Shown here: positions 1-40,786 of the stretch, in pieces
How positions within the stretch are numbered: position 1 is the stretch's first letter
Layout of the letters: every line of letters begins with the position of its first letter
Assembly (NCBI GenBank): GCA_032358255.1
Contig: JAULBX010026796.1
Location: forward strand, 1 to 43,327
Length of the DNA stretch: 43,327 bases
From: Heterotrichella gracilis
Taxonomy: Eukaryota > Sar > Xanthophyceae > Tribonematales > Xanthonemataceae
Reading direction: 5' to 3'
Position numbers and translations under genes: made by a program
Notes under the pieces: generated by a model
The model's database searches: none
Seen by the model: only the letters and a program-made list of their open reading frames with translations
What the model was told of the DNA's origin: nothing

Positions 1-3000
1 CCCGCCCTCCGAGTCTCCAAGCTCGACTACGACCTCGACCCCTCCCCCCCACCCGCCGCCGCCGTTCGCGACACCACACCCCCCACCATCACCCTGCTGG
101 GCCCCACCACCGCCACCATCACCCAGGGGATGCGGTTCCAGGACACAGGCGCCAGTGCGGTGGATGATGTGGATGGCAGCCTGGCGGGGGTGCGGGTGGC
201 GGGGCTGCAGGGGGTCAACACAATGCAGGTGCGGGAATAATATATCATGACAAAAGGAAACAATACAAAGCGTGCCACAAGTAAGATTCAATCAACATGG
301 CAGTTGCAGTTGTAGTCATGGTTGTAGTAGCGCTGTTGATGGTGTGGATGGCAGCCTGGCCAGGGTGCAGGGTTGGGAGGAAATATTGTTTTGCGGACAA
401 GGAAATGATAAATGCGTGACTCACGGTTGAACCGTATAGGAACCACAATGACATGCTAGGACTGACATCCACACCATCCACAGCGCTATAATCACAGTGA
501 TAGTGTCATTGTGGTACCCACAATGATATGAGAGGATGTCAGTCGCCTTGAACTATAACCCCAACCCTTCCTCAACCCCCCTTCCTTCACCCCCCCAGGT
601 TGGCACTTACAACGTGACCTACACCGCCACAGACGCAGCAGGGAACAGCGCCACAGCCCTGCGCCAGGTGGTGGTGGTCCCCCGCTGCCAGGCACCGGAG
701 GCCATGTGCCCCGACACCTGCCAGTGCAGCACCTATGGGGTGTGCTTCCCCGCGGGGGCGGTGGGGGTGGTGTGTGAGGCGGCGGGGGGCGGGGGCATGG
801 CGGCTGCTGGTAAGGGCTGGGGCAAGGGAGGGGTGGGGTGCATGGTTATACTTGAAACCTGATTGTAAAAGTAAGAAATTAAAAATATACAAAACGCTTG
901 CTCAGCGGCACCTTTGATCCCCCCATAGGGTTTAGGGTTTAGGGTAGGATACAGGGTTTCAGGACCCAGCCAACAATTTGCTCACCGCCACCTCCTGCTT
1001 TGCCCCCTGCAGGCGGCCCCGACACCACCTCTCCGGTCATCGTGCTGCAGCCGGTGGGTACCCGCAACCAGCTGGCACTCACCACAGGCGGCGCATGGGT
1101 CACCATCACCAACATAACGGTTGGTAGGTCAAATCTAAAACCCTAAACCCTAATTTGAACGGTTAGTTGTGTAGCTGGCGCACTCGAGGAGGGGGGAAGT
1201 AGGGGGTTGTGCGTCAGGGCCATAGGTGCTAGGGATTGGAGGGTGTGGAGGCGGGTTCAGGGTTTTAGGGTTAAAACAGCGTGGCCAGGGCGGTGAGCAC
1301 GCCATACTGCTGGGGATAGTTATGGTAGCCACTGTGTCCGTAATCCGTTGAATATGGCCCAGCAGGATGTAAGGGGCTCAGATTGGTCAGATGGTGGGCT
1401 GACACTGGAGCTACCTCCAGCAGCTATTGAAGGAAGTCTGGAGTGCATGGCGTGGGGGACGACTTGGTGGCTGCATCCCACCTGGCGAGTACAGTGGCAA
1501 GGCCCAGGTGGCACACATGGTACTGTACCTGTATGGGTCAATTGGTGGGCTGCCACTTGGCAGCAGCTAGTGAAGCATAACACTGCATAGCATAAACCCA
1601 TGCGGCCACTGTTGGTGGGTGCGTCCCTCGTTGGCCCAGAATGGCACTGTACCCCATATGGTCAGGTGGGGGTCTGTGGGGTGCAGGTGATGCGTTCAGA
1701 GATGCATACCAAGCAGTGGATGACAGGGATGGCAACCTGACTTCCTCTGTGTCTGCTTTCGGTGGCGCCTCCCTTGACCCCAGCCAGCCCACACCCCCCC
1801 AGCAGCCCCACCTCATCACCTATGATGTGGCGGATGGGGCGGGCAACCGGGCTGCCACGCAGCGCAGGAGGGTCAACGTGGTGTGTCCACAGGTAGGGTG
1901 TAGGTGGGTGAGGATAAGGGTGCTAATAGGGGGGTGTTGGTGTCCATGAAGGGGTTCATGAACAGTGACATGCATGGGGCAAGGCAGGCCACCAGAATCC
2001 TGTTGTATAGCAGGTGAAACGACGAAGAAAATATGACTTTGAACGTTTGTAGAACGAAGAAGGCGTACACTGCACACTTGTATTCCCATCAAATCTGGTA
2101 GGGTTCCGGTTAGGGTTCGCCTGGGCTCTAAGTCGGCGGGCCCCGCACCCATAACTTTCGCCTCGCAGCCATCGCACCCGGGTCCCTCATAGTCCCCGAT
2201 CCTGCAAAGTATCGTCATACTTACCTGGCCGGCGTTTCACTGCGACCCCGTAGGCAGTGGACGGTTCGTTGCGGTCTGCATTGCACCCCGCAGACTGCTT
2301 CGGATGGGGCGCTCCAAGTGGGTGCACCCACGGCTTAATTTTTGGTAGGCCGTTGCTCGCGCACTGCGCGTCCTCGGCACCCCTCAACCACCACCACCAC
2401 AACGAAACCAACACATATCAACAACACAAACCCCACCATCAACGCAGCACCCACAAAGCTGATACCAGACGAGTGCCACGACCACTTCAGAAGATAGGCT
2501 AGACCGAAGAAATCAGAGGCACTCATACCTAACTAGTAGACCCGAATTAGGCCTTGGCAGACGCACCTTCTATGGTACTCAGAGCGCCATATAGACAGGG
2601 GTGGGGCGGGGCCATGTGCCCATATGCCCATGATGGCATGGCATGTGGCAGTTGCAGCCACACTGGACCACCTGCCCCCTTGCACGCCAGCTCTAGCTCT
2701 TGCACCAACTCTTGCTCTCACTCTAGCTCTAGCCTGCTGCCCACTTGCGCAATAGTTCAGGCTTGCTGGGCTGAACACGGAAAGCTGCAGCCCTGGTGGC
2801 CGTGCGCCATGCCATCAACCCAGGGATGCTGCCCCTGTCCTAGAAAGTTTCCCCATGGTTCTCTGCGCCGCAGCGGGGTACTCTGTATCATTCTATTAAA
2901 TTTCATCAACCCTTCCTGGGGCTGTTGTGGCTGGTGCTCAACCAGGCTGGGTCACTAACTACACTACACTCACGGCCACGCTGGCAAGGCATGGCAAGGA

Positions 3001-6000
3001 AAGAAGGAAAGAAGGAAAGGGGTCGCGCAAAGGCGGAAGGGCCACTGGCTCGCACCAGGACACCGACAATGGTTTCAACTCATTAGGGAGCCTCGCTCCA
3101 GAGCCTCACCAGGGTCTCAACCCCCAACACTGACTACCAAACCCTTCACCCAAACCCTAAACCCTAAAGCGCACCCCGTTCCCCGCTGCAGTCCCAGCGC
3201 CTGTGCCTACCCAGCGACGGCACCCCCCCCTACTGCAGCACCAGCCAGGGGCTGTGTGTGGCACCCACATCCCACCTGCCCACCACCATGCCCCCCCTGC
3301 CTGTGCTGCAGCTGCTGGGTCCCTCCCAAGTGGTGGTGATTCAGGGTGTGGGGTACCAGCGGTGTGCGCCCAGCACCCCACTGACCACGAGTTGTGAGAG
3401 GTATGCTGGTGGGGCAGAATGATGGGCTTGTATTTGGTGAGGGAATGATGCGCTGCATGGTGGGGCGGATGGGTTTGTCACATACTGTACGTTGTGAGGG
3501 GAGGATGATGATGTGCCTGCATGATGGGTGGAGTGAGGTACGGGGTGGATCAAGGGTAATAACATTTTAATAAGAGAATAAATGCGGTAGTCCTTACTAT
3601 TATCTTATGATTCTTAGTGTGGGTTGAGGTACCCAAGAAGAGGCAATCTTGAATCGCATGACATGTCCTTCTCACCCTGCAGGGGTGCCAGCGCCTCCCA
3701 GCAGCAGGATGGGCCCCTCACCGCCCGCATAGAGGCCTGCTCAAATGTAACCACCAGGTAAGGGAATGGCGCATGGCACAATGGCCCACGATGGCCCCCC
3801 GCTGCCATGAAACTTGAGCTTGCAATAATGGAAATGCATTTCTGCCCATCATGTGCGCCGCGTCCATGCCGCGTCCCTGGAACGCGTGTTGAACAGCGCA
3901 GCACGCAGCGCCAAGGAAAGCCACACAGCTTGAACGTAGCTGAACAAAATTACAATCAACAATGCCTCCTTCGCACCAACGCCCTTATACTGAGACATTA
4001 CCCGCCGGGATCTATCCGCATCTGTTGGTTATTGCCATGCATTATCATTGTACTCTTATTGATCTGTTTTATTTCTTTTATTTATGTATTATTTCATTTT
4101 GCACGTGCCGTGGCCAGGTGGCTGTGGCGCGACGCGGGCCTGTCTGGCTGCAATTTGGACCCCTCAAGGCCAGGGGTGTACAACATCACATTCAGCGTGG
4201 CGGACAGCCTGGGGCGCACCGTCAGCGCCACACGCACAGTCACAGTGCGCGCACAGTGCCCGGCGGGGGAGGTGGCCTGCGCGGATCAGGTCCCAGAAAA
4301 CCCTAAACCCTACAGCACTTTACCTTGACCCCTCACAATGCACATAGGTGCCTAACACCTCTCGCAATGTGGGTGGATCAATTCTACCTTGAACTCTACA
4401 TCCTACTGCAATCAACCACGGGGTTTTGACCCCTCAACCCTAGCAGCCCTTATCCCACCTGATATGCCCTTCAAATCCCTCCTTACATGCCTTAGTCCCC
4501 ACCCGGTGCACCTGCATATTTACCTGGCGGCCGGCAAACCCCACCTAGGGTGTTGTGATCTCCACTCAATGGGCTACAATCCCCACAAGTTACACCCAAA
4601 TCCCCACCCCAATCCTCAGGTCACCTGCAGCAGCGGTGGAGTGTGCCTCAGCAGCCTCTCAGCCCCCACCAGGGCCTCCCCAGCGGCTGTGGTGGTGCTT
4701 CCACCCCCCACCCTCCAGCTGGTGACCTCGGCTGCGCTGCCAGCGGTGGTGCAAGTGCGGCAGGTGAGGGCTGGGGTGGGGTGCGGGGTTGGCTGTGGGG
4801 GGTTCGGCAGGACTTTGTAAGCGTTTGCATTGAATTTCCCTCCCGTCTTGATGGGCAGCAAGTGATATGCATGGATGTGCAATGGTTTACCTGGCTTGTA
4901 CATCCAATTGCACTCATGTGGAGAGATGTGCATTACTCAACCACGTCTTGACACATCCATTTGGTCACTAATGGCAGGCGTGGTGGCAATGTACCATTTA
5001 ATTATCATTCATTATTGTATTATTTTGCATAAAATTCCCTATTTATCCCGTGGCAGGGGTACGCATACACAAGCTGCGCATCCGGCCAGTCTCCCACCGC
5101 CGCCTCCCCCTGCGACCTGGGAGCAACAGCGCTCGATGGCAAGGGGAGGAACCTCACCAGCCAGGTACTCGCATGCCCACCCGCCACCTGCCTCTCCACA
5201 GGCGCGTGCTCCACCTACCTCTTCCAGTCAGCCGGCGTGGGAGGGTGCGGGGTCAACACCGAGCAGCCAGTGGGGACCCAAATTGACATCGCATTTGTGG
5301 TATTTGATGGGAGCATGCCGCCACAGAGCGCTACTGTGCTGCGGCAGCTGGTGGTTGCGGCCAGATGTGCGAGTGGGTTGGCGGAGTGTGCGACTGCCAG
5401 GGGGCCGGTGTGCAGCTCCGTGCCCTGTGTGCTGCTGTAAGTTTTCTTGTTTTTTTTTCCCTGTGCCCTGTGCGCTGCTGTTATTATTATTCTTTTCTAT
5501 TTTCCTGTGTCCTGTGCGCTGCAAATTTTCTTTTCTTCTTTTGCTGTGCCCTGTGCGCTGCCATTAAGTGCATTCCTTGGCATTCAAACACGCGTGGTAC
5601 ACTCATGTAAGTGCATACATGTGAGTACCATAGCACATGTGGTGAACGTCCTGCAAAATAGTAACCTGGGGGCATTGTACTCACATTTGCTTTTTGGAAA
5701 ACACATCGCCCTAATTACAAACCCTGCACCCTGTCCATGCAGGAGCCTCCTGGGTAGCTCCCAGCCAGCAGCCGGCAAGCCCACCCTCACGCTCTTTGAC
5801 ACCAACGCCACATCCTCCCTGCAAATCCCCATCAGCACCCCCTCCCCCACCCCCCTGCTCCCATGCACAGCATCTAACTCCACCGCCTGCTTTGCCGTGG
5901 CGGCATCTGTGGATGGCAGTGCGGATCTGTCCAGATCAATCAGAGCGGTGGACATCTCTTCATGCCCTGTAGGTAGGGAAATAAGGACACTGAAATGAAA

Positions 6001-9000: not shown

Positions 9001-12000
9001 CAAAGCTGGCAGGTTGCCGGATGGGATTCCCTTGTTGATCGACAGTATGCTCTCAGCCAGCAGTGCCAGCAAGCTGATGCAATACCTGGATGATGCCTAC
9101 TTCTTGGATGTCCTGACTCGCACGCTGGATATCCGCATTGTCACCCTCAACACAAAGCTCAATGTGTTTGGGTAAGTTGGGTCTTGTGTTTGCTATACAA
9201 TGCTCTGAGTGCATATGCATTTCCTCTGTATGGAATCACAATGATCACAGAGTAAGCACACAATCAAATCTCTGCGTGGGTGGCATCCGCCATGTCCTCT
9301 ATGCAGAGGGTAAAATTGTGTTGACTCTGTGCTTGTGTTTTGTTACCAATTCACCCGAATAACAAATGACCAAAAGTAGGTGTTCACCAGTATTATCATT
9401 GGAGATTTACAGACACAAGTGCATTCACTAAATTCTCATTCTGGATCCCTGCAGGTATGCAACCTTTGAGCTCAGTTGGAGGAAGTCTGGCGACATTATT
9501 GTGAGCGCACATCTGAAAGAGCTGCCCCAGCTGCACTACGATACCACCAGGCAGGGGCTGCAGCGCGGTTTTACTGACGTCATTCTGATGGTGCTAGTTG
9601 TTGGGCAGGCATGGTATGTGACTTCGAGTATCGTTGCCAAAGTCAGAGCGCTGTTGATGTTCCAGGTACGAGTATACACTGCTGTAAACGCAAATGGAAA
9701 TGCTTAAGCTCGAGTAGACCAACCTATGCGTTGTTTTGGCTGTCTACTGTCTTACAAAAATTCTTTTTGTATTAAAATTATTAAAATCAAAGTAGGACAG
9801 TACTTGGACAATTGTTACAGCCACGTCAAGAATGTAACGGCAGGTGTGAAATTGCTGCAGGAGCGGTTCAGCCTGTTTTGGATGCTGTTTGATGTCGTCA
9901 ACATGTTGGGTATGGTCCTGGTTGTGGCCATCTTCTGCACATATGCACGAGCTGCAGCCTTTCAGTTTGATGCCGATGGAAGCTATGATGTGTACGATGC
10001 AATTGACTTTGCGCAAGCACGCCTGCTGCTGCCTGCCAAGCAGGGAAATGGTTCTGTAAGCAAGGCTGGTCCAGGGGATCCTGGGAGGTGGATGCTGCCA
10101 GACAACAACACAGGTAATGTGACGTGAAAATGTGACTCAGTTTTCTTATGTGGTGATGCAGGTCTGGGAAAGGTCGACATTATTCTTTGTCCATTTTCTT
10201 TTCCTTTAAAATGTTATGTACAGTGTTTTTGGTAAAAATATATTGTTATACCATGGAAACAAGAAACTTCGAAGAAACAAGTAACCTGGAAGTTGTGTTG
10301 CAACCATAGTGACACACATTTTAGCAACATGGGCATCCCAGCAATTATGCTTGTATATTTGTCTCCCTCTGCAGGGCTTGACCGCCTGGCAGACATGTAC
10401 TCCAGCCTGGACCAGCTGTCCTCCCTCTCCACCGCCTACACCAGCATCCAGGGAGTGTGCCTCCTCATGATGCTGGTGCGACTGGTGCACATGCTGTCTG
10501 CCCAGAGGCGCCTATCTGTCATCACAACCACCCTCCTGGTGGCGCTCCCCCAGCTGGTGTATCTGACCATTGTGGTGCTGTCGGCGATGATCATGGTGGC
10601 TTCAATGGGCACGCTTGCGTTTGGACCCTCGTTTGGGGTGCTCAGCAGGCCGGAGCAGGCGGTTGCTGGTGAGGGCATGTAGTCCAAATCGCGATGTGTG
10701 TGTGGACATCTAAGCATCTACGTCCAGTAGCCAACAGATTTACTGCAACTAAGACTCTGATTTTCTGCATGTGCACTTCCACTGCATTGCTGTGGCCCCA
10801 GCCTGCCATCTGTGTGTAGGACAGGTTTGCATTGCCCAAGTACTGTCCAACGAGTCCACATGTGCAAATGCTGATGGAGTTGATGTGGCGCAGGTGTGTT
10901 CATGGAAATGATCAGTGGTCAACTGCAGCCAATTGTCGAGGATCTGCGGCGCTCAGACCAGATCCTATCCACAGTGCTGAGCCTTGCGGAAAACTTGGTC
11001 ACCATCCTTTGGTTCTACTTTGTGCCGGTGTTGACGATGTTCATCCTCTGGAGGTATGCTCACCATTCCACTTGAAACATGTGAACACATTCATTATAGG
11101 TGTGCTTTTTACTGAGTCTGGGCACCAGCAATTTAAAATTATTTTAAGAAAAATGTAAAATGCTGACGATGTTCATCCTCTGGAGGTATGCCCACCATTC
11201 CACATAGAACATGTGAACACATTCATTATGGGTGTGCTTTTGACTGAGTCTGGTCACGAGCAATAAAAAAAAGGTGTGCATTATGTTTGGATAATGTAGC
11301 CCTTCATATTTTTATCCTTGCTTACAAGATTTACAAGATTTAATTGACAGTTTGCTAGAAAATAATGCATTGTTTTGTAAAAATCACTCGGCACACCTTT
11401 ATGTATAGACCTAACATTTACATGATTGGTGTGCCCAGGTTTGTCCTGGCGGTGCTGGTCGATGAGTTCTCCCACCAAAACAAGTCCGCCAAGCACGCAC
11501 CAGGCATCCCTGCAGATGTGGCGCGCATTTTCCAGGAGCGCGTGGAGAAGGTGCTGTACAAGGCGCCCTCCAACCAGGAGATGCTGCACGTGGTCAGCAG
11601 GGCAGCCTACAAGAGGTGAGTGGCTGGCTTGCATCACGGTCACCTGATGGTCCATCACAAAGGCAGGCTGATCGGTGCTGGTGAGATCGCCATCTTCAAT
11701 ATTGTCAACCCTTCCTTCACGTCACAAGCATTTTATGTGAAATCAGACAGAGACTATTGTCAAGTGAGGCCCATATGGCAGGTTAAACTGACATATTCTG
11801 TGCCTGCTGTCCAGGCATGGGAGGAGGGAGAGCCTGATGAAATCAAAGCCTTATACAATATAGACAAGTCTAAGTGAGTCACATCTGGCACATCCAACTG
11901 ATACATATTCTGTGCCTGCTGTCCAGGCATGGGAGGAAAAGCGTGCTGGCTGTGGTGGCTCAGCGGGCCAACATTGCCATGAAATGGGCCAAGAACACCA

Positions 12001-15000
12001 CCCTGTCAATCTTCTCAAAGCACCACCACCGAGGGACCAAAAAGGTGCAACGGAATGTCATCCGTACTTTTGATGAGGATCTCGTGGAGGCGGAAGACCT
12101 GCGGGGCATGGTTGAGCAGCTGGCAGTGGAGTTGGGCTACTCCTTTGACACAGTTAATTGGGTGGTGGATGAGCTGCTGAAAAGGTAGGTGCCCAGAGTA
12201 TCTTGAGCTGCTTTGTCTGATTGCATGCCCCAATTGTGCACTGTGATGACTCCAAGCGTGCACAGTCACCAATGATGTGCTCTTAAGATCCTAATTGAAA
12301 AGGTCCTTTTTCCTGGAAACATTTGGGCATTGCTGGGTTTGATGACAATGTGAAGCCGTGACAATGCAGTGGTATCAAATAGTATGAACCAGCAAAACAG
12401 TGGTATGACAGGGTACGGTAGTGGCTATAGCCACCATTTTCAATTGTCCACATGGCATGTGCGCATATCAAATGGAGTTCATTTGTTAAGATAAATTCCA
12501 TTCTTTTTAGCTTTTGCCGTCTGAATAGCAATTCACCTTCAAATTCACCAGTATGGCCCTGCTGCACAGGTTTGGTGAAACCAGCACAGACTATGTCAAG
12601 AAAGACAATGTGTCTCCATCGGGATCACCCCGCATGTTTGACGACACACCCAGCATCTTGAGCGCTGCATCACCCTCAGACTCACACACCTCATCGGTAA
12701 GCATAGGCCATCCACTTAAATTCACATGCGTGGAATGCATGGAGCTTCCCAGCTTCCCAGTGTATCAGTGCTTTTCAATAACTCTGTGCTTTACTAAAAG
12801 CCTGGCAGGACATCTACTTCCCTATAGCCCTGGTGCCCTGGTGCGGTCCAGTGGCCCCCTAACTCCGCCTCTGTGCGTTCCCTTTCTTTCTTTCTTTTGG
12901 TTTTCTATGAGCTATTCAACATGCATTATTTGTTATTCTATGATTATAATTAAAACTGCATTATGCATTTCATACTGCATACTGCATTATAACTTGCATT
13001 TCAATTTGTGTTTTCGTATACTCGATATCTTTCATTTTCTCCAGGTGCTTTACAGCAATCAATCCAGCCTTGGCCGGGCCTACATGCAGCTGCAGAACAG
13101 TATGGGCAGCGAGGGGCAATTCAGGGAGGTTGGGGATCGCATGGTGTTCAGAGAGCCAGCACCATCCGTATGGGGGGCATCATCGCTGATACCTGCTGGC
13201 GCAAGTTTGGCAGGTCAGTCACAGCCCATCAGATGCAGTGTGATGAGTAAGAACATGCAGTCCATGGTACTTTTCCAAGCCTGCTGGGAGGGGTCAACCG
13301 AGGGATACGTTGTTCCTCATCTACTGTCAATCAAAAGTAGCGGGTAACTTTCTTTCTATTTTTTCAAATACCAGCTTGAATGTGGCACTAGTGGATGCAG
13401 TTTTGTAGGTTGAAGAGGCGCAGTTCATTCAGAAATGTGCATAAACATGGTAATTAATCATCTAATTGTATTGGGTGCAGGTCGACGAGGCAGCAGCTCT
13501 GACAGCAGCAACAATGCAGAGAGGATGGCTGAGCCCTTTGAGCTGGAGGATGGAATGGTGTTCAGGGAACCAGCTGCATCGGTTTGGGTGGTGCCTGGAT
13601 CGGTGCCAGGGGATGCCGCGCCCAATTTGGCAGGTGATTTGCTGCCTGTGCGTTTGCTGGACATAGAATTGCCACTGTGATTTGATGTGTTTGATGCCTG
13701 ATAAATGTGCTTCTGGTCTCGGTGGGGGGCATGATTTGGTAGTCTATTGCACTGCAAGTCTCCAGCATTGCGTGGACTGTGATTTGCGTTGTCATGCAGA
13801 CAAAGAATGTGTGCTACCATGGGTGCTGGCCATCAGGGGCATGAATGCTAACTAGACCAGCTACCCCCAACATATTTAGCATAAAATACCACAAAGAATG
13901 CATAGTCAGTTTTCCAAAACAAACGCACTTAATAATAATATATGTGCAGGTCGATCGAGCGACGCAGAGCAGGTAGCAGACCCAATTTGTACCACAGAAG
14001 ACACTTACCCAATTATAATAATAATAGAAGGGAAAATAAAAGCACTCTTGATGTGTGCAGGCCGATTCAGCGACGCAGAGCAGATGGCCGACCCCTTTGA
14101 GCTGGATGACGTAATGGACCAAGACGAGGCAAGGCAGGCAAGGGCTTCACTCAAGGTATCCCCCGAGCTGGCGCTCAGCCTGCCCGCCTCCCCCCGCGAC
14201 TCGCGCATGTCGATGCTCAAGCCCTATGATGACAGGAGCTCGGGGCTGGTCATGTTCTATGGGAACCCCCTCTCGGGGCAAAGGTATGGCAGGGGAAGTA
14301 TTTTAGTGCATGCACACCTCTGGGATGGCATTTGCCCTTTTTTAACCAATGCATTTGCCCTTTGGTTCCCCTTGGTGCGCCTGTTCAACAACATACTGCA
14401 TACATGAATATGTTTATTACTTATATATTTTTTCATTCATTATCATGATTTATATGTGTATATTTCCGCAGGAAATCCCAGTTGTTTGGGGCCACCAGCA
14501 GCACAGAAGGTCAGGAGGTGGCTGAGACATACACCTCTTACATCCCAATGCATGTGCACCGAAGGGCGAGCTATCCCCAGGATGATATCCCATCCTCAGA
14601 AGACGACGAAGAATCCCCGCTGCTGCCCGATACCCTAAACCCTAAACCCATGGCACCCTCGTTTGCCCTCTTGGAGCAGAAGCGGTATGAGATGATCCTC
14701 CTGAGAAGGTCGTTTCTTGCGCAATCCTCAGACCTCCCCCCACCCACCCACGCCACCCCAGACCCCCACCAGCACCCCGCCAACCACCAGCACCAAACTC
14801 AGGTGTCTGCCCCCAGCCACTCCTCCCCCCGCCACTCCATCCAGTGCAGGCCCAGCGCCAAGGGGGCAACTAGGAAAGGATCCAGGGGTTTCTATGAGAA
14901 GGATGGCACCCAATCAGATATCCAGGTATGGTAGGGGCTATAGCAGATTGGAACCTCCTTGCCAGGGCCATGCCTGTGTGGTATAGTCTCCTTCCTGAAT

Positions 15001-18584: not shown

Positions 18585-18587
18585 TGT

Positions 18588-28740: not shown

Positions 28741-30445
<1,705 letters not shown>

Positions 30446-31332: not shown

Positions 31333-34300
31333 ATGGTTGTGGCAGTGCACGCTGCACACCGCGCCGATGGCGCTGGCCCTCTGCATCGCCCTGAAGTCGA
31401 CTCACAACTACTCCAAGAGCTGCTCCTTGCACTGCTGGGGCACACGGGAGGCGTGTTTGTTTTCGTTCCTGGAGATGTGATGAGCGAGGCTGTCGAGCGG
31501 GGTGGCGTGGTTCCGCCTGACGAGTGCACCATCGAGGTTGCAAGGGAGTTGCAGGGCGTCACAGGGCCGACGAGGTACCGTTCCCATATGCATGCATGTT
31601 CATTGCTTGCCTGTTTTGCTGTCCTGACACCTGTAATGCTTAAAAATATCTGATTAATGAAATACTCCTGGTGAAGATATTGGTTTTGGAAAACGTGGCG
31701 AAGCTGGGAGCAGGTTTAGACATCAAGATGTGGACCCTGAAAACCATTGCTGTGCGTTATTCAGGGAATTGCTGAACAGCATTTTGAAACTGGGCTCTCA
31801 CTTTCACGAAGTGAAGCGGTTTTATGACAAGAACAGCAGCTACAGCGCACACCAGGACCCATACCGAAAGGCCTTGGCTCACGGGCTGTCAGGTAAAAAC
31901 GCGCCCTCTTTCCCAACGCACATGCACCAAAAACCGTGCAGATTCCTCACTAAAAAATCAATGCAAATGCACCGCAGAGCTGCTGGATGTGTACAGAGCC
32001 ACCCTGGTTCAGCTGCAAAGGCTGCTCCAGCAGGAGCAACGGGTTGCGCTGCCCAGCCTGCACTACCACCTGTCAGAATTCCAGGTGCGTGATGGCTACT
32101 ACTTATACCTGTAAGAGGTTTCGTGCATGCCACACCAACCAGTATGCACTGCAACATATCAGTGTGCTGGTGCCCCCACCAGTACCCTTCAGAAGCTGTG
32201 CAGAGGCCCTAAATTTGAAACCCTAAACCCTAAATATCCGTTGAGCCAGTGCACAGCAATCGACCTGGGGATTTTACCGACAGTCTCTGGAACTGCAGCT
32301 GCACCATACACCCCAGCACCTCCTATTTGCACCCAATGCATTTAGTCGTCGCCGTCAAAATAATCATCATTATCCTTCTTATGGACACAATACAGGATCA
32401 TTCTTCTTCTTTTTGCTAATAGTAAATGGCATAATTACTCTTCTCATTATCATCAATAATTGGCATAACGCAGGCTGTCCTCCCCGTGATCCACCAGCTG
32501 CTGTACATCATCCACCAGGAGCGGTGCGTAGGCGCAGCCATCACCAGCTTGCTCCACGAGCACAGCCAATCTGGCGTGCCCGCGCTGCAGTCCTGCTTCA
32601 CGCGCCTGCTGTGGCACTGCAATCAGGTCATGTTCAAGCAGACAGCGGGCTGGTAAGCTATGCACAGAACCCTTTACAACCCGGCAGCAAAGCAACAAGA
32701 AATCCAACCCTTGAAGCTAAGATAGCGGGATGGTGAGGCACTGTGCATGGAACCCTGTCACCCAGCTGTCAAAAGCATCGCCTCCTGTTATGGCATCAAT
32801 CCCCATGCGGAGCAAACAGCCATGCTGAATTGCAGCAACTTTGTGGTCCACAACTCGTCAGGCATGTGAGGCATGCTGGGCCACTAAAACTCAATTTCAC
32901 ACATCAGCTCGTTGCCTCACACATGGCCTGCCAGGCGCCTGCAGGAGAATGTTGCAGTTTGTGCAAGCTGCACTGGTACTCTAGTTGAACCTATAAAATG
33001 CCAAGCAACGCATCTATGCTATGCCATGCACCTGCACAATGATGTACGGGTTCCAGATGGGCGACAGGCACAGAACTCTCCCCGACCCACCAGAACCCTT
33101 GTGTCCAATTCTTCCCACCCAGCTACTGCCAGTTCACTTCCTCTGAGCCTCACCAATAAAGCATGCCCTCCGCCTGCAGGATGATGTATGGGTTCCTGGT
33201 GGACGACACAGGCACCTTCTTCATCAAGCGCGCACCGCAGCGGGCCACTCCACAGGACGCAGCCACAGCAGGCGACAGCGGCTCGGCAGGTGCTAGCAGC
33301 AACGGTCGCCTGGGTGACAGGCCAGCATCAGCATCAAGCCGAACCAGCAACGAGTGGCAAACAGGGTTCATGGTGAGCCAGTGCATTTACGGGGAAAACA
33401 TCTCAGGTTTCTGCTTTCGTTTTAAGGAACAATGCCCCGCAAGTGACGACCAGCATTATGTTGGAATTGATTTATAAGAATATGTTTATGACCGGATTTA
33501 GTGCGGTGCTGGCCCATGCAGCACTGCAGCCCTGACCAGCAATGTGGTAGCATTGGCGGCTTCCACAGAACCATCAGGAACCCCTGGGTGGAGCAATTCC
33601 CCATCCCAGGGAACCATGCAAGAGCAACACGCGCCCCTTTTGCGAGGAATCAGACCTCAACAATGGGGTCCCCACGTTCACCCCGCTTTCCCTCCCCTTT
33701 CTCCAGGTCGACGTGGCCAAGCTCCCCCCCCTGGTGTCCTTCCAGCTGGCGCACGACATCCTGTTCATCGGCAAGGCGGTGCGCATGCTGGCTGCGCCAC
33801 CTGGCACTCCACAGCCAACCACAGACCGCCCCCGGACGCCACACCAACCGCACGCCTCATCCTTGCCCCAGCAGCGAACGGCGGGGCAGCAACCGCACAG
33901 CTCATCCCCGCCTCTCCAGCCAATGGCAGGGCAGAGGGCAAGCGAGTCAGGCGCACCGGGGCCTCCTCAGCCAATGGCGCAGCGCCACGTGGCGGCGCTG
34001 GGTGAGGCGTGCAGGGTGCTGCAGGCGGGGTGTGTGGTGCGGCGCATGGAGCTGGAGCGGGTGGTGGGAGTGGCCAAGGAGCAGGTGGGGACCCTAGCTA
34101 AACCCTAGCCAGAACCCTAGCCGAATCGTAGCAATGTCATGGAAGGAGGGCGGGTTGGTCCTTGTGGTTGCAGCGCTCATGAGAGTGCGGTCCCGCTGAA
34201 GCGCGCAGTGTGTTGCCCATGGCAGGTGACCCCTCCTTATGCCGCTCCCTGGAATGAGCCATATCTGACTTCCTCCCCTTAAGACAGACATGTTTCCTCC

Positions 34301-36729
34301 CCCCTTACACAGGTTGCCTCCAGCCTGCTCCACCTGGTCGTGGTTGAGAGCTCGCTGCCAGCCCACCTTCAAGCCATCAAGGACTACTTCCTCATGGGAC
34401 AGGGGGACCTGTGGGCAGGGGTTATGGAGGAGGTGAGGGGCAAAATCTCAGAGAAGGGTTAGGGAACTGTTTCGTTAGGGTTTAGCTTAAGCTTCAAGCT
34501 AAAGGTTTTGGATCATCAAGGGCTACTTCCACATGCAGCAGAGGGGTGACGGACGTGTGAGGGAAGGTGCCATGGGTCCCTGTGTGTACTGTGCATGGAG
34601 GAGGCGCAGAAGGGAAGCCATAGGGTTAAGGGTTTCACCAAGGTTTCCCTTGACGGTTTTCCGGGTTGGAAGGCCAGAGCAAATTTAGGGACCCGTTCAC
34701 CAATCCGTTATTCAGGCGGTCATGCCGCTGACAGAGGCATTGTCCACTGTGGCATGGCCTGCTTACTGCCCACAAATGGCATCACTCCACTGTCATACAC
34801 CAACCACCCTCCACACCACACCCTCCACACCCACCTTGCAGGCCCGCCTCCTCTTCCAGCTGCCCCCCCGCCCCTCCCCCGCCACCTACGATCTCGCTAC
34901 GCCCCTGGCCCAAGCAGCTGCCAAGCTGGGGCTAGACACCTCAGACCCCCTGCTGCAGCGCTTCCGGCTGGGGTTCACACCCACAGCCACAGCCACATCC
35001 GCCTCCGGCACCCCACAGCGCGTGTCGGCGCAGGCGGGTGGTGGGGGTGCAGGGGCGGCGGGTGGGGGTCTGTGGGTGCCTGAGCTGGATGGGTGGGATG
35101 GGGTGTTTCTGGATCTGGATGTGCAGTGGCCCATGCATGTGCTGCTCAATGAGGAGGTGGGTGGGGAGATGGAGCCCAAAACCCTAAATCATGAACCCTT
35201 AACTGTGAACCTGAAGTGCTGCTTGATGAGGGTGGATGGGTGCAACCCAAAACCCATGAATGTTATCTCAAAGTCCTGAGCTCTTGGACCCTGGATTTAA
35301 GTGGCGATGGCCCAAGCATATGCTGATCAATGAGGAGGTGGTTGGGTAAGGTGTGAAGCCCAGAACCCTATGTCCCTAACCGCAACCCTATCCCCTGGAT
35401 CTGGATATGAAGTGGCTGTTCCGGTATCTGCTCCTCTAAAACCTGACACACCTGCACAGCAGCATCCGTGGACTGTAGCATCCACACACACACACTCTCA
35501 TCCACCCCTGCCGCAGGCGCTCACCCGCTACCGCGCCCTGTTCCAATACCTGCTCCGCATGCGACGACTGGCCGCTGAGTTGGACGGGGCATGGGCCACC
35601 CTCCATGCACACCACTCGAGGCAGCAAGGGGGGAGCAACAGGGGGCGGTGGGGCGCAGCAGGGGAGGGGGGTGGCGATGGCAGCACCGGCAGCACCGGTG
35701 GTGGTGGTGGTGGTGGTGGCATGCGCAGCCTTGTTCAGCTGTGGGAGCTGAGGCATCGCATGGCGCACCTGGTCAACAACCTGCAGATTTATGTGCAGGT
35801 GGGTGTTGGGCAGTTACGTTTGCGGCGCTCAACTTCACTGCACTTGAAAAGGCGCAACTGTGCAACCCCAAACCCTGATCGCCCTGCAACTGAGCCCCGC
35901 AGGTGTGTTTCGCCTCCCTCCCACCACCATATCCCCACCTTGCGCCTTTCCCCTCAGGTCGACGTGATTGAGGCGCAGTACTCCCTGCTCCAGTCCCGCA
36001 TGGCTGCCGCGCGTGACTTCACTGCGCTTGAGAAGGCGCACACGCAGTGGCTGCAGGCGCTGGTCAGCCAGACATTCCTGGATGCGCGCGCCCTCATGTC
36101 TGCCATAGGGGGCGTGGTGGCGGACTGCAGGCAGCTCTGCGCGCTGGTGCAGGTGGGTGGGGGTGGGGAGGTACATCTAGCTGGAGCTAGTGCGTTTTGC
36201 ATGGTCAGATGTACAAGGGTTAGGGTTTAGTTTTGGGTTACTGCGCAAATCACACCTGGTGGGAGGCTATGACGATCCTGGCGCACCCTGCACCCTCTCT
36301 CTACATCCTTCCTACGCCAAAAGCCAATTTATATCAGTTTGCTAGAACTACATATTGTAGAATAGAATATAAGTGCTTATTCTCCACATCTGATTTCACT
36401 TTTCATGTATTCTTTTTATCAAGTTGTCCTTGTATATTGTAAACAAATTGACAATATTCCAATAATGTATCCCTAACCAATTTCTTTCATTTTTGCAGCG
36501 ATTTGAGCGCCTTGCCCCAGGCGACCAGCCGCGCATGGACCCAGTGGATGTTGCCGCCCTGTGCGCCTCCTTCCTCACCCGCTCCACCCTTGTGTACACA
36601 GTGCTGCAGAGCGGCAGCCTGGCCAGGAGCAGGGCAACCCCATTCATACGCCAGCTGCTGCTCAGGCTCAACTTCAATGGCTACATGGCGGGGCAGGCGA
36701 GGCACCGAGCGAGGGGGGGGAGGGGTTGA
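31333..36729 (+). CDS. GCP4: Gamma-tubulin complex component 4
   Basis: GCP4 is a subunit of the gamma-tubulin ring complex that nucleates microtubules at basal bodies and other organising centres. Exons are 31333-31574, 31765-31892, 31978-32084, 32474-32652, 33180-33372, 33707-34084, 34313-34432, 34842-35156, 35517-35798, 35958-36152 and 36499-36729. All are GT-AG and in phase: 2,370 nt, 789 residues, against about 667 in human and 745 in Arabidopsis. Family marks are LLQELLLALLGHTGGVFV at the start, YRKALAHGLSG, LPVIHQLLYIIHQERCVGAA, WHCNQVMFKQTAGWMMYGFL, FFIKR, LQAIKDYFLMGQGDLW (GRIP-type core), WPMHVLLNEE, LTRYRALFQYLLRMRR, ELRHRMAHLVNNLQIYVQVD and FTALEKAHTQWLQALVSQTF. The extra length comes from a Pro/Gln-rich insert in exon 6 and a Gly-rich run near 35698. 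The start is the only in-frame ATG before the conserved N-terminus. Confidence 0.93.
32714..32760 (+). repeat. Decayed copy of the GCP4 exon 4 end and donor
   Basis: AGATAGCGGGATGGTGAGGC near 32719-32738 parallels CAGACAGCGGGCTGGTAAGC at the real donor (32652/32653). Similarity continues for about 40 nt into the intron (TGTGCATGGAACCCT against TATGCACAGAACCCT). Confidence 0.65.
33021..33070 (+). repeat. Decayed copy of the GCP4 exon 5 start and acceptor
   Basis: CACCTGCACAATGATGTACG then GGTTCC parallels CGCCTGCAGGATGATGTATG then GGTTCC at the real acceptor (33178-33179), about 150 nt downstream. The acceptor AG of the copy is lost (CAA). Confidence 0.75.
34512..34560 (+). repeat. Decayed internal copy of GCP4 exon 7
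   Basis: ATCAAGGGCTACTTCCACAT at about 34514-34533 matches ATCAAGGACTACTTCCTCAT in exon 34313-34432. It is followed by a G-rich run like the exon's. Confidence 0.75.
35209..35420 (+). repeat. Three decayed copies of the GCP4 exon 8 end
   Basis: The exon end near 35105-35156 (TGGATCTGGATGTGCAGTGG ... CTCAATGAGGAGGTGGG) recurs in the intron. Copy one is at about 35211-35258 (TGCTGCTTGATGAGG). Copy two, the best, is at about 35285-35345 (CCTGGATTTAAGTGG ... GATCAATGAGGAGGTGG). Copy three is at about 35395-35418 (CTGGATCTGGATATGAAGTG). Confidence 0.8.
35816..35860 (+). repeat. Decayed copy of part of GCP4 exon 10, upstream of it
   Basis: AACTTCACTGCACTTGAAAA then GGCGCA matches GACTTCACTGCGCTTGAGAA then GGCGCA inside exon 35958-36152, with an offset of about 185 nt. 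Confidence 0.75.
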
Positions 36730-37074
36730 TAGGGATGTCCAAAGACAGCAGTGAGGTCAGCTGCAGTGTTGTCTGTAATGATCAGCTGGGCATGATTCTG
36801 GTGGCAAATTGCGGATTATGTGACGATAGCTCGACCAATTGTTCAAAGGACTTGGTGATCGCATGTGTGTTGAGGGTGCCAGTGCCGCTGGTGCCTTTTG
36901 AATGTTCACTCCCTGCATGCTGACGCCAGCGCCAACACTTGGTCCACTCGAGTCTCCAGGTCCACTGTTCCACTCCCCACCCTGTATCTCCAAGCAGGTC
37001 ATCTGCTGATGCAACTGACCAGTGCCACTTCCAAAAAAGGCAAATGTGGCAGACAGATGGGGAGATTTCGCTAG

Positions 37075-37300
37075 TATATTGCAAAAACGTTTAGACATGA
37101 CCCCCTCAAAATATTGTTTTCAATAGTTTGAAACTGATCGAAAACACATCAGACGTTCGTAACGCTCGTCTATGCCTGATCCAAGTTCGATTTTACGTCG
37201 TTACAAGTCATCCGACCGTTACGATTTCGAGTTTGATCAGTCCAAAACGTTTTCCAAAACATACTTTTGGGGGGTCATGTCTAAACGTTTTTGCAATATA
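37075..37300. mobile_element. MITE-like element with about 31-36 bp terminal inverted repeats
   Basis: The left arm, 37075-37110, begins TATATTGCAAAAACGTTTAG. The right arm, 37265-37300, is its reverse complement. The outer 31 positions match perfectly before a small slip in the C-run. Weaker mirror similarity continues inside (GTTTGAAACTGATC against GTTTGATCAGT). At 226 bp with no coding capacity it fits a non-autonomous DNA transposon, and TA at both ends is compatible with a Tc1/mariner-type target. It could also be a simple hairpin-forming repeat. Confidence 0.75.
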
Positions 37301-37301
37301 A

Positions 37302-37426
37302 TAGCACCCCTGGACTCTGAATCGGAATGGCCAGAGGGGGACGGTTCCGGAGACGCCACTGGGAGTGGCCCTGTTTCCCTCCTCAAAACCTCCAACGCAC
37401 AGCTTGAACAGTTACTGTCACAGTAA
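37302..37426 (+). other. Possible orphan terminal exon
   Basis: Directly right of the MITE-like element an open frame with plausible coding style (PLDSESEWPEGDGSGDATGS, ending NAQLEQLLSQ before TAA 37424-37426) follows an AG. No upstream partner exon is visible. It may be a relic or chance. Confidence 0.25.
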
Positions 37427-37617
37427 CTGAAAGATGGACCGTTCAGACTGAGTGTATCATTTGGATATCTGCCTCATGGACCATTTCCCGACCCTTTACC
37501 ACCGCTAGTGGTTGCCAAAGGCTAAGCCAGTACTAGTATCTGTCGCAGTTGCGGCTTTGTAACTTGCTCCTGACCTGGTGCAAAAGGACCCACCCCTCGG
37601 CGAGTCACAGAGCAGCC

Positions 37618-40185
37618 ATGTCTGACACCTCAAAGAGGCCCTTGCTCACTGGCCCATGGCTGCTCGCCACGGTGACAGCCCTCGTGCTGCTGACCCTCTT
37701 GACATGCCTGCCCTCCGCAGCGGGGTTGCCCTGGCTGTTATTGGTAGCAGCAGTGTTTAGGTAGGTGCACCCAGCTCAGACTGAACTCCTGGACCTGTAA
37801 AACCAACACTACCTGCTGCAGCACAAATCAATTACCAGGTCTATGCCTACAGCCTTCTGAAAGTGTGTGCTGTCAAATGCATGTTTTGGCTTCAGCCAGC
37901 ACCATTGTTAATGACCCCAGGGAGATGTGCCGCTCATAGTGCAATGCCCATATTGCTAAGCAATGCCTTTGAAAGAAATTCCCACGCAAGGTTTCAACTA
38001 TTCACTGTGGTTTATCGTCATTGTCAGCACTCTGTGCACCTGGTGTCAGGTACCACACGAGGTACTTCAGAGTCACCGTGATTGGCAATATTCACTGATA
38101 TCGTCCCCTCTTGGTTCAGGTCAGATGTCCACTCAAAAACTTTGATGCTACTATGGAGGAAGCGCATGCGTGACGTGTATGACAGCGCTGTGAAAATATT
38201 GAAATGAGTATGAACTTGGGTAGTAGCATTACTGTTGCTTGAGCAGTGATCATCACAGTATCATAGCCAGTAGCAATGCAGTATGCATGAGCAATGCCAT
38301 TCTTGTTTCAAAGTGGTACCTAAACTGTCTCTCCCGTGTGTGTACAGACAGCAAAACACCGGCCAGCAACATCATTTTGGGCTGACGCAGTGGTAATCGT
38401 CAAAAGCATTGACAACATTGCTCAATATCTGATTGTGAGCATGGTATTCGTGTGCACATACGCCACATTGGCCAACGTGTTTGGCCTCCCGGGTGTGCCA
38501 AACCCAGGCATCGATCTCATTTTTGAGAACCTGGGCAGATTGTTTTCAGAGTCATTGCTCAATGGAGTAGATAAGCATATGGATGACCTGGCATCAGATT
38601 TCCCCGCAGAGGATATAGCCAACTTGAAATTGGTTGTGTTTGGTGTCACTGGAATCTGCGCAATGCTGTTTGTGGCCATCTCCTTGGCAACAGATGACAA
38701 GCTCAGAGCGCTAATCAAGATCATTTTCATTTGGCTATTGCTTGCTGCGTCCTCCAAGGCCAACGCTACTGGGGGGTATGTGAGTCCCAAGGATGTGGGT
38801 GACCGCCCCTGGGGAGGCCCTGTGGGCAAGTTTTTGGGGCAATTCAGCACTTCATGGCGTGTTGGGGCGCTGGGAGAAGGTGAGGCTGCATGCGGGAGTG
38901 GTCAAGGTGGTGGGTGGTGTGGTAGGGTTGTTGCTTGCAAATGGTTACAATCATTGCTATGATAGCTGCATGGCTGCATGCAATGGCTGAGTTCCATATG
39001 ATCGTGATGCCTCGTCAATGGGTTTCTTATAATGAGTTTAATTTGGAGGTTGATCGGGCACAGTTGTATATCAACTGTGCCAGCAATGTATTCAGCTACT
39101 ATTCTCTCCTTGTGTGGGCTTGTCCCTGGTCCATTTTAGCAGCACCCCTTCTCTGTCACAGGGCTGACTTTCAACAAGAAGCCGACTCAGAGCCTGCCAA
39201 GAACCTCCTATGGTGAGTAAATTTCTGCCTGCCTGGCGCATTGATTTTGCAGAGCTTGCATGCCGCGGCACCCATGTTCTTCATTGGGCTCATTGCCGTG
39301 ACCCCCCCTTATACCTCCCACCCATACCTGCAGTGCTACAACTGCTCCCTGCGCACGCATACTCCAGACCCTGCATTTGTGATTATTATTGCCATCGTTG
39401 CCACTTGCTCGCTAATGGATTACTGCCCTGTGACCCCATCCCATGCCAGCTGTCATGTCGTGCATACGTACACAGTGATGCTGCCTCCATCCTGTGCAGC
39501 TGTGCATGGAGACCCTTGATCTGTGTGGCACAGCCTTCGTAAAAAATGCTTTCAATGGTACCGCAGGGACCGCTTCTTCTTCTGCCTGCACGCTGGTGAC
39601 ACCCAGGAGGCTGCTTGGCAGCATTGTCCCTCGCTCTGCACCTGGTGAGTGACGCCTGCCTGCCTGGGGCTCAGGTTATGCTCGCACCACATGCTGTCAC
39701 AAACTGCACAACAAACCCTTGACCTTGCAGGGGACCTGTTCCCATTGCATGCCGTTAAATCCATGTCCTCCCCTTGGGCCCATTGCCTTGACCCCCCTTG
39801 TACCTCCCACCCCTGCAGTGCTACAACTGCTCCCTGCGCACGCATACTCCAGACCCTGCATTTGCAATATCCATTGCCACCGTTGCCACTTGCTCACGAA
39901 TGGCTTGCTGCCATGTGACCCCGTTCCATGCCAGCTGTCATGTCGTGCATACATACACAGTGATGTGGCGCAAGCCCAAATGCTGCCTCCATCCTGTTCA
40001 GCTGTGCATGGAGAAAGTTTACGTAGTAAACCCTAATCTGAAACCCGTGTCTCACGGTGTCAGGCGTTGGCGCATGCGCATGCAATGCATTGCAGCGGCT
40101 TTCCACTAGTATGATTTTAACATGTTAATGGTGTGCCTTGCAGTTCCCAGATCGCCGGTACACGTTCCCCCCCCGCGTCTACTAG
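37618..40185 (+). CDS. Unrecognised multi-pass membrane protein (3' part unresolved)
   Basis: I do not recognise the family. Two exons look real. Exon A, 37618-37760, starts at ATG and encodes MSDTSKRPLL then a hydrophobic stretch (WLLATVTALVLLTLLTCLPS) and a second one ending AAVFR. Exon C, 38348 to about 38775 or 38779, encodes FWADAVVIVKSIDNIAQYL with two to three membrane helices (LIVSMVFVCTYATLANVFG, LVVFGVTGICAMLFVAISLA and IKIIFIWLLLAA). A further helix, NYSLWFIVIVSTLCTWCQ (about 37991-38048), has a donor in the phase needed for exon C, but its link to exon A would need a 17-nt microexon. Downstream candidates are 39162-39212, 39500-39644 and a terminal exon 40144-40185 (ending RRYTFPPRVY and TAG). 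I could not fix their joins. Confidence 0.5.
39265..40015 (+). repeat. About 250-bp tandem duplication, spaced about 510 bp
   Basis: About 39282-39515 and 39775-40010 share long runs such as GTGCTACAACTGCTCCCTGC, CGCACGCATACTCCAGACCC and GCCAGCTGTCATGTCGTGCA. Both end in a C/T-rich CAG followed by CTGTGCATGGAGA, which looks like an acceptor with an exon start. Similarity looks near 85 percent or higher. Confidence 0.85.
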
Positions 40186-40186
40186 T

Positions 40187-40786
40187 GCAATGGCGGATTG
40201 CAGGCGGTTGTGTGTGCTGATGCAGGTGGGTGGGGGTTTTTATGTACATCTAGCTGGAGCGCATTGCATGGTCAGAGATCGGTTTTAGATTGCTGCGCAA
40301 GTCACTCCTGGTGGGAGGCTACGACAATCCTGGCACACCCTGCACCCTCTTACCACATCCTTCCTACATGGTGACCAAAATCCGTATTATATCATTTTGT
40401 CAGAACTAATTGTTGTCAAATTAAACAGACGAGCACAATGTTCTCCATATTTTATTGTCATTATATTGGTTGCTACTACAGCGTCATAACAACTTGTGAA
40501 GCAAATTGACGATATTAAAATATGTATCCTTTACCACTTTCTTTCATTTTTGCAGCGATTTGAGCGCCTTGCCCCTAGCGACCAGCGGCGCATCGACCCC
40601 ATGGATGTTGACACCCTGGCCGCCTCCTTCCTCACCCGCCCCACCCTTGTGTACTCAGTGCTGCAGAGCGGCAGCCTGGCCAGGAGCAGGGCAATCCCAT
40701 TCATACGCCAGCTGCTGCTCAGGCTCAACTTCAATGGCTACATGGCGGGGCAGGCGAGGCACCGAGCGAGGGGGGGGAGGGGGTGA
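40187..40786 (+). pseudogene. Duplicated 3' end of GCP4 (end of exon 10, last intron, last exon)
   Basis: Homologous to 36115-36729. It begins inside exon 10 (GCGGATTGCAGGCGG for GCGGACTGCAGGCAG, with its donor at 40226), continues through the last intron (shared GGTGGGAGGCTACGA or GGTGGGAGGCTATGA, CTACATCCTTCCTAC) and includes the whole last exon, 40556-40786. That exon is still fully open with the same 77-codon length: RFERLAPSDQRRIDPMDVDT to GYMAGQARHRARGGRG and TGA. Differences include conservative substitutions (GDQPRMDP to SDQRRIDP, TRSTLVYT to TRPTLVYS). It has no start or upstream GCP4 exons, so alone it is a gene fragment. It might be used as a 3' exon by the preceding gene. Confidence 0.85.

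What the first reader, a model, noticed from the sequence alone, without database searches (positions are those of the whole stretch)
1..40786. Exon-edge echoes: introns hold decayed copies of their own neighbouring exon edges
Across the window, introns or gene flanks repeat the adjacent exon end, acceptor plus exon start, or part of the exon, from nearly identical to barely readable. Independent cases are 332-377 and inverted 463-488 (exon 1-228), 5461-5562 (three copies), 11162-11264, 11778-11827, 13950-13990, 32714-32760, 33021-33070, 34512-34560, 35209-35420 (three copies), 35816-35860, 39775-40010 and 40187-40786. They hit at least two unrelated genes, usually keep orientation, lie within about 100-500 bp, and often include the splice site. 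This suggests a recurrent process that copies short spans across exon-intron junctions. Candidates are slippage repair of breaks, template switching, or aberrant RNA-templated repair near splice sites. It would be a continuing source of decoy splice sites and new exons. I know of no named system of this kind.
Basis: partly seen in the sequence, partly recalled or inferred. Interest (0 to 1): 0.85.

Follow-up and report, generated by a model that had tools for sequence, protein, structure and literature searches.

The report
Exon-edge echoes from telomere-like break repair
In this alga-like genome many introns carry decayed, same-direction copies of the neighbouring exon edge, and in about a third of the spaced cases short telomere repeats sit between the two copies, which suggests that DNA breaks near splice junctions are mended with telomere-end chemistry and that this is one way introns grow.

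Summary
In detail: of 16 sub-cases checked in the window, 14 beat all 1000 random-segment controls and two beat 999. In 293 kb of the same genome there are 81 local direct-duplication clusters (119 direct pairs, 2 inverted). 43 pair a junction-spanning exon edge with an intron copy; 11 are intron-intron. New here is what lies between the copies: 16 of 51 spacers hold a TTTAGGG tract (null 4.5). Conversely, 8 of 20 separately fetched telomeric tracts are flanked by 27-77 bp direct duplications, against 74 of 1993 random points and 1 of 22 other microsatellites. Tracts also crowd within 60 bp of junctions (45 of 81; expected 24.8). Best explanation: staggered breaks whose overhangs are filled in, often with telomerase-added repeats, then joined; selection keeps those that leave a working junction. 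Such events are known in mammals, less often with duplications in horse and rodents. Spliced-RNA templating and AGGT-type intron gain are not supported.

The parts
154..197 (+). source: middle of exon 1-228 (polycystin-like gene)
   Evidence: 38/45 identical to 329-373; exon 1-228 by HMM; next exon piece 599-808 matches PF16403 Ig-like
329..373 (+). echo copy in the following intron
   Evidence: 0 of 1000 controls as good
455..488 (-). inverted second-order copy of 328-360
   Evidence: 30/34, 0 of 1000 controls; one of very few inverted copies
5420..5561 (+). tandem array of about 3.4 x 43 bp echoing the exon end
   Evidence: 28/34
11029..11138 (+). source: exon end 11029-11053 plus donor GGAG|GTATGC and intron start
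   Evidence: HMM exon ends at 11053
11161..11270 (+). echo with intact decoy donor GGAG|GTATGC; 22-bp AT-rich spacer 11139-11160
   Evidence: 99/110; splice register; no other copy reported in the genome
11772..11825 (+). echo of acceptor plus exon start (source 11882-11937), acceptor CCAG|GCATGG kept
   Evidence: 49/56; splice register
13940..13983 (+). echo of acceptor plus exon start (source 14051-14094)
   Evidence: 37/44
32711..32756 (+). echo of exon end plus donor (source 32633-32673), gamma-tubulin-complex gene region
   Evidence: 34/46, weakest case
33021..33071 (+). echo of acceptor plus exon start (source 33163-33215)
   Evidence: 42/53
34514..34550 (+). echo of exon segment 34375-34408; telomeric TTAGGGTTTAG at 34475-34485 lies between the copies
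   Evidence: 30/37, beats 999 of 1000 controls; tract flanked by this repeat
35216..35416 (+). three echoes of exon end/donor 35109-35186; CCCTAAA at 35182-35188 at the edge of the source
   Evidence: 9a, 9b, 9c
35821..35856 (+). echo of exon segment 36005-36040 (gamma-tubulin-complex gene)
   Evidence: 30/36; preceding exon 35517-35798 matches PF04130
39745..40014 (+). duplicate of 39256-39512, predicted intron against intron
   Evidence: 227/276; only these two copies reported in the genome
40191..40786 (+). duplicate of gamma-tubulin-complex exon region about 36118-36729 (segmental duplication, not an edge echo)
   Evidence: 51/63 and 233/247

Best explanation
The echoes are scars of staggered double-strand-break repair. 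A break with long single-stranded overhangs (tens of bases, region X) has both overhangs filled in, so X is doubled in the same orientation. Filler is added between the filled ends and they are joined, giving A-X-filler-X-B. In roughly a third of spaced cases the filler holds this organism's telomere repeat (TTTAGGG), as expected if telomerase extends a broken 3' end before joining. The rest have other filler, and 15 of 72 clusters are tandem or overlapping. If X spans an exon-intron junction, one copy keeps coding and the other lies in the intron as a decaying decoy; copies wholly inside exons are mostly removed by selection. Some units expand into X-tel-X-tel-X arrays, perhaps by unequal exchange. 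Shown: the X-spacer-X anatomy, direct orientation, telomeric tracts in spacers, duplications around telomeric tracts, and junction excess. Inferred: staggered break, fill-in, telomerase action, one-step origin and selection.
For: Direct orientation: 138 direct vs 3 inverted hits, chance 1.5; 119 vs 2 pairs. Spaced anatomy: 55 of 72 clusters have 6-160 bp non-aligned spacers, sharp-edged in young pairs, e.g. L014 9364-9400/9469-9505 97%. Telomeric filler: exact tract >=8 bp in 16 of 51 spacers vs null mean 4.45, 0 of 300 replicates as high. Reciprocal test on separately fetched data: 20 of the places listed, chosen by position before their flanks were seen; 8 of 20 flanked by 27-77 bp direct repeats, within 0-4 bp of the tract on both sides in L041, L042, L044 and L046; 0 of 20 inverted; 74 of 1993 random points; 1 of 22 other microsatellites. 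First data set: 23 of 84 intronic tracts >=11 bp flanked directly, 0 inverted, vs 95 of 1500 intronic points; without the array-rich locus L018, 12 of 66 vs 61 of 1200, P=2e-4. TTTAGGG is the telomere repeat: 42-base arrays sit at the very starts of contigs C70, C140, C526, C609, C717 and C770 in terminal orientation, and a telomerase RNA-binding domain is found on C626. 1053 exact matches to the 20-base repeat pattern genome-wide (overlapping matches and terminal arrays included), reversed-pattern control 0. Homology-defined example: L044 1-225 is dihydroxy-acid dehydratase (E=2e-29); its exon end and donor reappear across AAACCCTAAACCCTAAACCCTAAAACCC. Neutral decoys: offsets not multiples of 3 (14/15/14).
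Against: No empty orthologue was available, so one-step insertion is not shown. Of the six window spacers printed, none holds a telomeric tract >=8 bp; in the window only case 8 has a tract between copies and case 9 a heptamer at the edge of its source. In-register priming at tract ends was not clear and not tested statistically. X-tel-X-tel-X and tel-X-tel-X arrays (L033, L046, L047, L039) also allow the tract to be older than the duplication. With loose alignment templates, permuted heptamers also scored spacers above introns (mean percentiles 0.54, 0.69, 0.64 vs 0.71 for TTTAGGG; counts above the 95th percentile 6, 8, 13 vs 15 of 51), so that measure is weak; the exact-tract tests carry the argument. 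Tracts >=15 bp in the first set are flanked less often (8 of 44) than 11-14 bp tracts (16 of 44, 10 of these 16 in L018), opposite to a simple age trend. The 20 fetched tracts come from the first listed contigs only.
Confidence: 0.6

Rival explanations
1. Ordinary neutral local tandem duplication by slippage or unequal exchange, with nothing special about telomeric repeats or junctions. Exon edges stand out because one copy is conserved and because duplications inside exons are purged.
For: 15 of 72 clusters are tandem or overlapping. Arrays exist (L018). With my earlier, faulty complexity filter pairs >=85% identical gave 9 edge to 7 intron-intron, no excess over its twofold null.
Against: 55 of 72 clusters have non-aligned 6-160 bp spacers. 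Telomeric tracts are enriched between copies and copies around tracts. With the corrected filter 43 of 54 exceed the threefold null (P=5e-4) and 14 of 20 pairs >=85% identical exceed the twofold null (P=0.008), though not clearly the threefold null (P=0.06).
Confidence: 0.2
2. The telomeric tract comes first and acts as a fragile site; later breaks or slippage at the tract duplicate its flank. Direction of cause is reversed.
For: Tel-X-tel-X and X-tel-X-tel-X arrays, in which the tract is part of the repeating unit (L033, L039, L046, L047).
Against: In L041, L042 and L044 the two copies border one tract closely on both sides, and no second full tract borders their outer ends in the stretches printed; a lone TTTAGGG heptamer lies beyond the second copy in L041 and a degenerate AACCCTAGACCCT beyond it in L044.
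Confidence: 0.15
3. Telomere-like motifs near junctions are kept because they help splicing (UAGGG or G-runs near donors, CTAAA branch-point-like sequence near acceptors); echoes and motifs only coincide.
For: For tracts >=8 bp within 60 bp of an acceptor the C-rich strand is strongly favoured (23 of 28), near donors mildly the G-rich strand (32 of 55), and inner tracts are balanced (46:40). That such motifs act in splicing is recalled, not from a call.
Against: Does not explain duplications flanking tracts nor the balanced genome-wide strand count 520:533 (which does not separate introns).
Confidence: 0.1
4. A junction-directed process, for example RNA-templated repair or template switching driven by nascent transcripts or R-loops at splice sites.
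For: Junction excess of duplications and of telomeric tracts, the latter free of the exon-conservation bias (45 of 81 within 60 bp vs 24.8 expected; permuted motifs pooled 165 vs 157.2).
Against: No convincing spliced copies at 433 junctions. Eleven intron-intron clusters exist. The gene model may place acceptors at TTTAG within tracts, so the acceptor half of the tract excess is less safe.
Confidence: 0.15

Closest known systems
Short interstitial telomeric sequences inserted at double-strand breaks (Nergadze 2007, PMC2246262, passages and section 7 read; Santagostino 2020, PMC7215372, passages read; author name of the latter recalled)
   Same: Short telomeric tracts at many internal sites; direct duplication of the break site attributed to staggered breaks in horse; non-telomeric filler also seen.
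   Different: Simple duplication is a minority class there: 3 of 66 horse, 6 of 130 rodent, 4 of 25 primate loci, against 8 of 20 tracts here (P=3e-4, 4e-5 and 0.07). My count uses no empty orthologue, so the classes are not strictly comparable. Here tracts crowd at exon-intron junctions; human intron placement was judged compatible with random.
Small tandem duplications from CST-Pol alpha-primase fill-in of complementary 3' overhangs (PMC8355091, passages read; plant work of Schiml 2016 is cited there, not read)
   Same: Direct duplication of tens of bases from filled-in overhangs; uses a telomere fill-in complex.
   Different: Those are induced breaks in mammalian cells; telomeric filler between copies was not among the passages I read. 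CST dependence is untested here.
Intron gain by tandem genomic duplication (PMC4974935, listing and start of abstract only)
   Same: Local duplication next to splice sites.
   Different: Donor and acceptor are not in the same register of two copies here. These are mainly copies added to existing introns.
Plant telo boxes (Gaspin 2010, PMC3022908, passages read)
   Same: Short TTTAGGG motifs in genes; the authors proposed telomerase acting on free 3' ends in promoter regions.
   Different: Those are short motifs mainly in 5' regions, without flanking duplications in the passages read.

Membership tests
Interstitial telomeric insertions at double-strand breaks | Internal tract has the organism's own telomere repeat | tested here: met
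   42-base TTTAGGG arrays at contig starts in terminal orientation; 1053 matches of the 20-base pattern, many internal
Interstitial telomeric insertions at double-strand breaks | Break-site modification at the insertion, including direct duplication | tested here: met
   8 of 20 vs 74 of 1993 random points
Interstitial telomeric insertions at double-strand breaks | Inserted in one step into an empty ancestral locus | not testable with these tools
   no relatives of this genome are held
Interstitial telomeric insertions at double-strand breaks | Break-end nucleotides in register with the telomeric repeat | tested here: inconclusive
   junctions printed only, few overlaps, no statistic
CST-Pol alpha small tandem duplications | Short direct duplications (tens of bp), inverted copies rare | tested here: met
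   138 direct vs 3 inverted hits; 27-77 bp at the fetched tracts
CST-Pol alpha small tandem duplications | Dependence on CST, primase and 3' overhangs | not testable with these tools
   needs genetics
Intron gain by tandem exon duplication (AGGT model, recalled) | Donor and acceptor at the same register of the two copies | tested here: not met
   identity at register 0.250 vs 0.251 at other shifts, 0 of 368 introns above 0.5; one gapped candidate, L014 751-889/925-1054, possibly a gene-model artefact
Introner-type mobile introns | Many similar copies across the genome | tested here: not met
   two window duplications queried; no copies reported outside their own locus; other spacers not queried
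RNA-templated (retroprocessed) copies | Spliced exon-exon junctions in the copies | tested here: not met
   433 junctions, 2 flags with only 9 bp of upstream exon each, neither convincing

The most novel reading that the evidence does not exclude
In this lineage the telomere-end machinery (telomerase plus the C-strand fill-in complex) is a major route for mending staggered breaks, and such breaks concentrate at exon-intron junctions of transcribed genes. Each event adds roughly 80-190 bp (offsets of the 43 edge clusters, 5th-95th percentile 78-191): telomere repeat or other filler plus a copy of the exon edge with its splice site. Telomere addition thus becomes a continuing engine of intron growth and of decoy splice sites.
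Probability: 0.3. Interest if true: 0.82.

Novelty: new variant of a known kind. Interest (0 to 1): 0.62.

Why it matters
How introns grow and acquire new splice sites is an open question. This genome appears to record the process at high density: 56 of 435 sampled introns hold a visible event, a good share with a recognisable molecular filler. If break repair with telomere addition really concentrates at exon-intron junctions, it links telomerase, break repair and splicing evolution, and the junction bias becomes directly testable with relatives, break maps and RNA-seq.

Tried and rejected
Length periodicity: offsets first looked clustered near 104 and 205 bp (pairs printed); the per-cluster analysis gave P=0.38, so dropped, although the per-hit version gave P=0.02. 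In-frame offsets: no preference for multiples of three. AGGT-type intron gain: negative. Spliced RNA copies: none convincing. Mobile-element reading: the two window duplications queried have no other reported genomic copies. My first complexity filter penalised long repeats and missed L044; with it the counts were 12 of 84 vs 75 of 1500 and 7 of 20 vs 76 of 2000. It was corrected and the enrichments redone. The corrected filter and a pre-event null raised the junction excess, so the earlier 'no excess in young pairs' no longer stands as written. Dropped before counts: L004 and L029 (GC about 37%, unlike the rest) and L009 (all N). L001-L003 were not in the HMM set; L002 and L003 were examined. 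Gene models come from a home-made HMM seeded with window peptides and were not checked by RNA; one of its exons (2294-2317) lies inside a U1 snRNA gene.

Paper searches behind statements about print: (one search returned none). In those listings I saw no paper on telomeric-spacer exon-edge duplications in introns; the library lacks most subscription journals.
Full report
The window is G000:C428:1-43327, part of a 68.5-Mb, 903-contig genome. Four of seven exon pieces given to Pfam had matches at E<=0.01: a polycystin channel (10377-10667), an Ig-like surface domain (599-808), a cytidylyltransferase-like protein (29771-30442) and a gamma-tubulin complex C-terminus (35517-35798). The telomere repeat is TTTAGGG: 42-base arrays occupy the starts of contigs C70, C140, C526, C609, C717 and C770 in terminal orientation, and a telomerase RNA-binding domain is found on C626. 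I did not identify the species; the green-alga-like lineage is inferred from splice signals, telomere repeat and gene content.

Sixteen alignments were checked; 14 beat all 1000 random-segment controls and two beat 999. Not all are edge echoes: case 11 is predicted intron against intron, case 12 is a segmental copy of gamma-tubulin-complex exons about 4 kb away, and case 2 is a short tandem array.

To test generality I fetched 28 ten-kilobase pieces of the genome. One was all N and two had GC near 37%; these were dropped, leaving 25 pieces plus the window, 293 kb. A splice-aware HMM trained on 19 of these loci gave CAG|GTRRG and TGCAG|G signals and, over all, 435 complete introns of mean 316 bp. 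A cross-locus control on 18 loci gave no false pairs at the BLAST threshold. A finer scan of intron-centred regions gave 138 direct hits against 3 inverted and 1.5 by chance at score >=28. Of 14 pairs printed, most show sharp-edged copies of 37-91 bp separated by non-aligning spacers; L011 8633-8839 and L012 5985-6129 are plain tandem.

Classes after correcting my complexity filter: 81 direct clusters, of which 43 pair a junction-spanning exon edge with an intron copy, 12 have exon sequence in both copies and a junction in at least one, 11 are intron-intron, 6 pair exon interior with intron, 6 are exon-exon and 3 are intergenic. Under random placement with pre-event intron lengths, junction-spanning cases should be 0.34 of the edge plus intron-intron set, or 0.49 allowing twofold longer detectability because the exon copy is conserved. 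For pairs at least 85% identical it is 14 of 20 against 0.27 and 0.41 (P=6e-5 and 0.008; threefold P=0.06), and at least 90% 9 of 12 (P=4e-4, 0.012 and 0.05). So the excess is real against simple expectations, but its cause may be a higher event rate in exon-like DNA rather than recognition of junctions. Where the junction could be aligned, intron copies keep GT in 17 of 18 donors and AG in 15 of 21 acceptors; offsets show no preference for multiples of three (14/15/14), as expected of neutral decoys.

The key clue is the spacer. TTTAGGG-type 6-mers are about 3.5 times more common in introns than the median permuted heptamer (160.9 vs 45.3 per 6-mer; next highest 65.4). Exact tracts of at least 8 bp occur in 16 of 51 spacers, against 4.45 expected from intron windows (0 of 300 replicates). 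The reciprocal test on fresh data is stronger. One search counted 1053 matches and listed only the first places; from these I took 20 by position, outside loci already held, before seeing their flanks. Eight have 27-77 bp direct repeats on both sides, none inverted; random genomic points give 74 of 1993 and other microsatellites 1 of 22. The intron-matched rate of the first data set is 95 of 1500. In L041, L042, L044 and L046 the copies lie within 4 bp of the tract on both sides. L044 is independent of my gene model: L044 1-225 matches plant dihydroxy-acid dehydratase at E=2e-29, and the exon end with its donor is repeated across the telomeric tract.

Telomeric tracts also lie closer to junctions than uniform placement in the same introns: 45 of 81 tracts of at least 11 bp within 60 bp, expected 24.8, 0 of 4000 replicates; permuted motifs pooled 165 observed vs 157.2 expected. 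This measure is free of the exon-conservation bias. Caveat: TTTAG can pass as an acceptor in the gene model, so the donor side (27 tracts) is the safer half. Near acceptors the C-rich strand is favoured 23 to 5, which suggests some selection by splicing.

Independent recurrence: the paralogous intron in L003 (C141) carries its own echo of exon end plus donor (1643-1714 / 1751-1822, 90%), with ACCCTA-type sequence nearby; the best match there to the window's echoed stretch is in the exon itself.

Mechanism. Direct-only orientation argues against templated insertion by alternative end joining as the main source (that such insertions come in both orientations is recalled). Non-aligning spacers argue against simple slippage. 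Duplication of a break site around telomeric repeats has been described as repair of staggered breaks in horse (PMC7215372, passages read) and as a class in rodents and primates (PMC2246262, passages and section 7 read). Small duplications from filled-in 3' overhangs depend on CST and Pol alpha-primase, which also fill in telomere ends (PMC8355091, passages read). The economical reading is that some breaks here are processed like telomere ends. What remains inferred is the break geometry, the enzymes and the one-step origin. X-tel-X-tel-X arrays show that later expansion, or a tract-first history, also happens.

Judgement. In kind it is a variant of telomeric insertion at breaks; its density and its placement at splice junctions are what is unusual. 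Only a minority of the window's own cases carry a telomeric tract, so the telomeric route explains part, not all, of the echoes.

Noticed in passing
window 2217-2378 (+): A U1 spliceosomal RNA gene (Rfam RF00003, 99.6 bits) lies inside the polycystin-gene intron between predicted exons 1687-1892 and 3192-3361; the small HMM exon 2294-2317 there is spurious.
   Followed up: partly
L018 (C15:10001-20000): Exceptionally dense in telomeric heptamers (40 in 10 kb) and in multi-copy exon-edge arrays; the tract-flank result was therefore also given without it.
   Followed up: partly
L004 (C1:10001-20000) and L029 (C180:40001-50000): GC about 37% against about 55% in most other pieces; C1 is the longest contig seen (894 kb). 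Possibly symbiont, organelle or contaminant.
   Followed up: no
L017 913-1314 / 2710-3111: 402-bp inverted repeat, 98.5% identical, about 1.4 kb apart; looks like a recent inverted duplication or mobile element.
   Followed up: no
window 13045-14100: A run of related exons in the polycystin-like gene (MVFREPA.SVW and DPFELDD motifs), i.e. tandem exon duplication with one decayed copy at 13940-13983.
   Followed up: partly
predicted introns of the 26 loci: Telomeric tracts >=8 bp near acceptors strongly favour the CCCTAAA strand (23 of 28) while inner intron tracts are balanced (46:40); possible selection via polypyrimidine or branch-point function.
   Followed up: no
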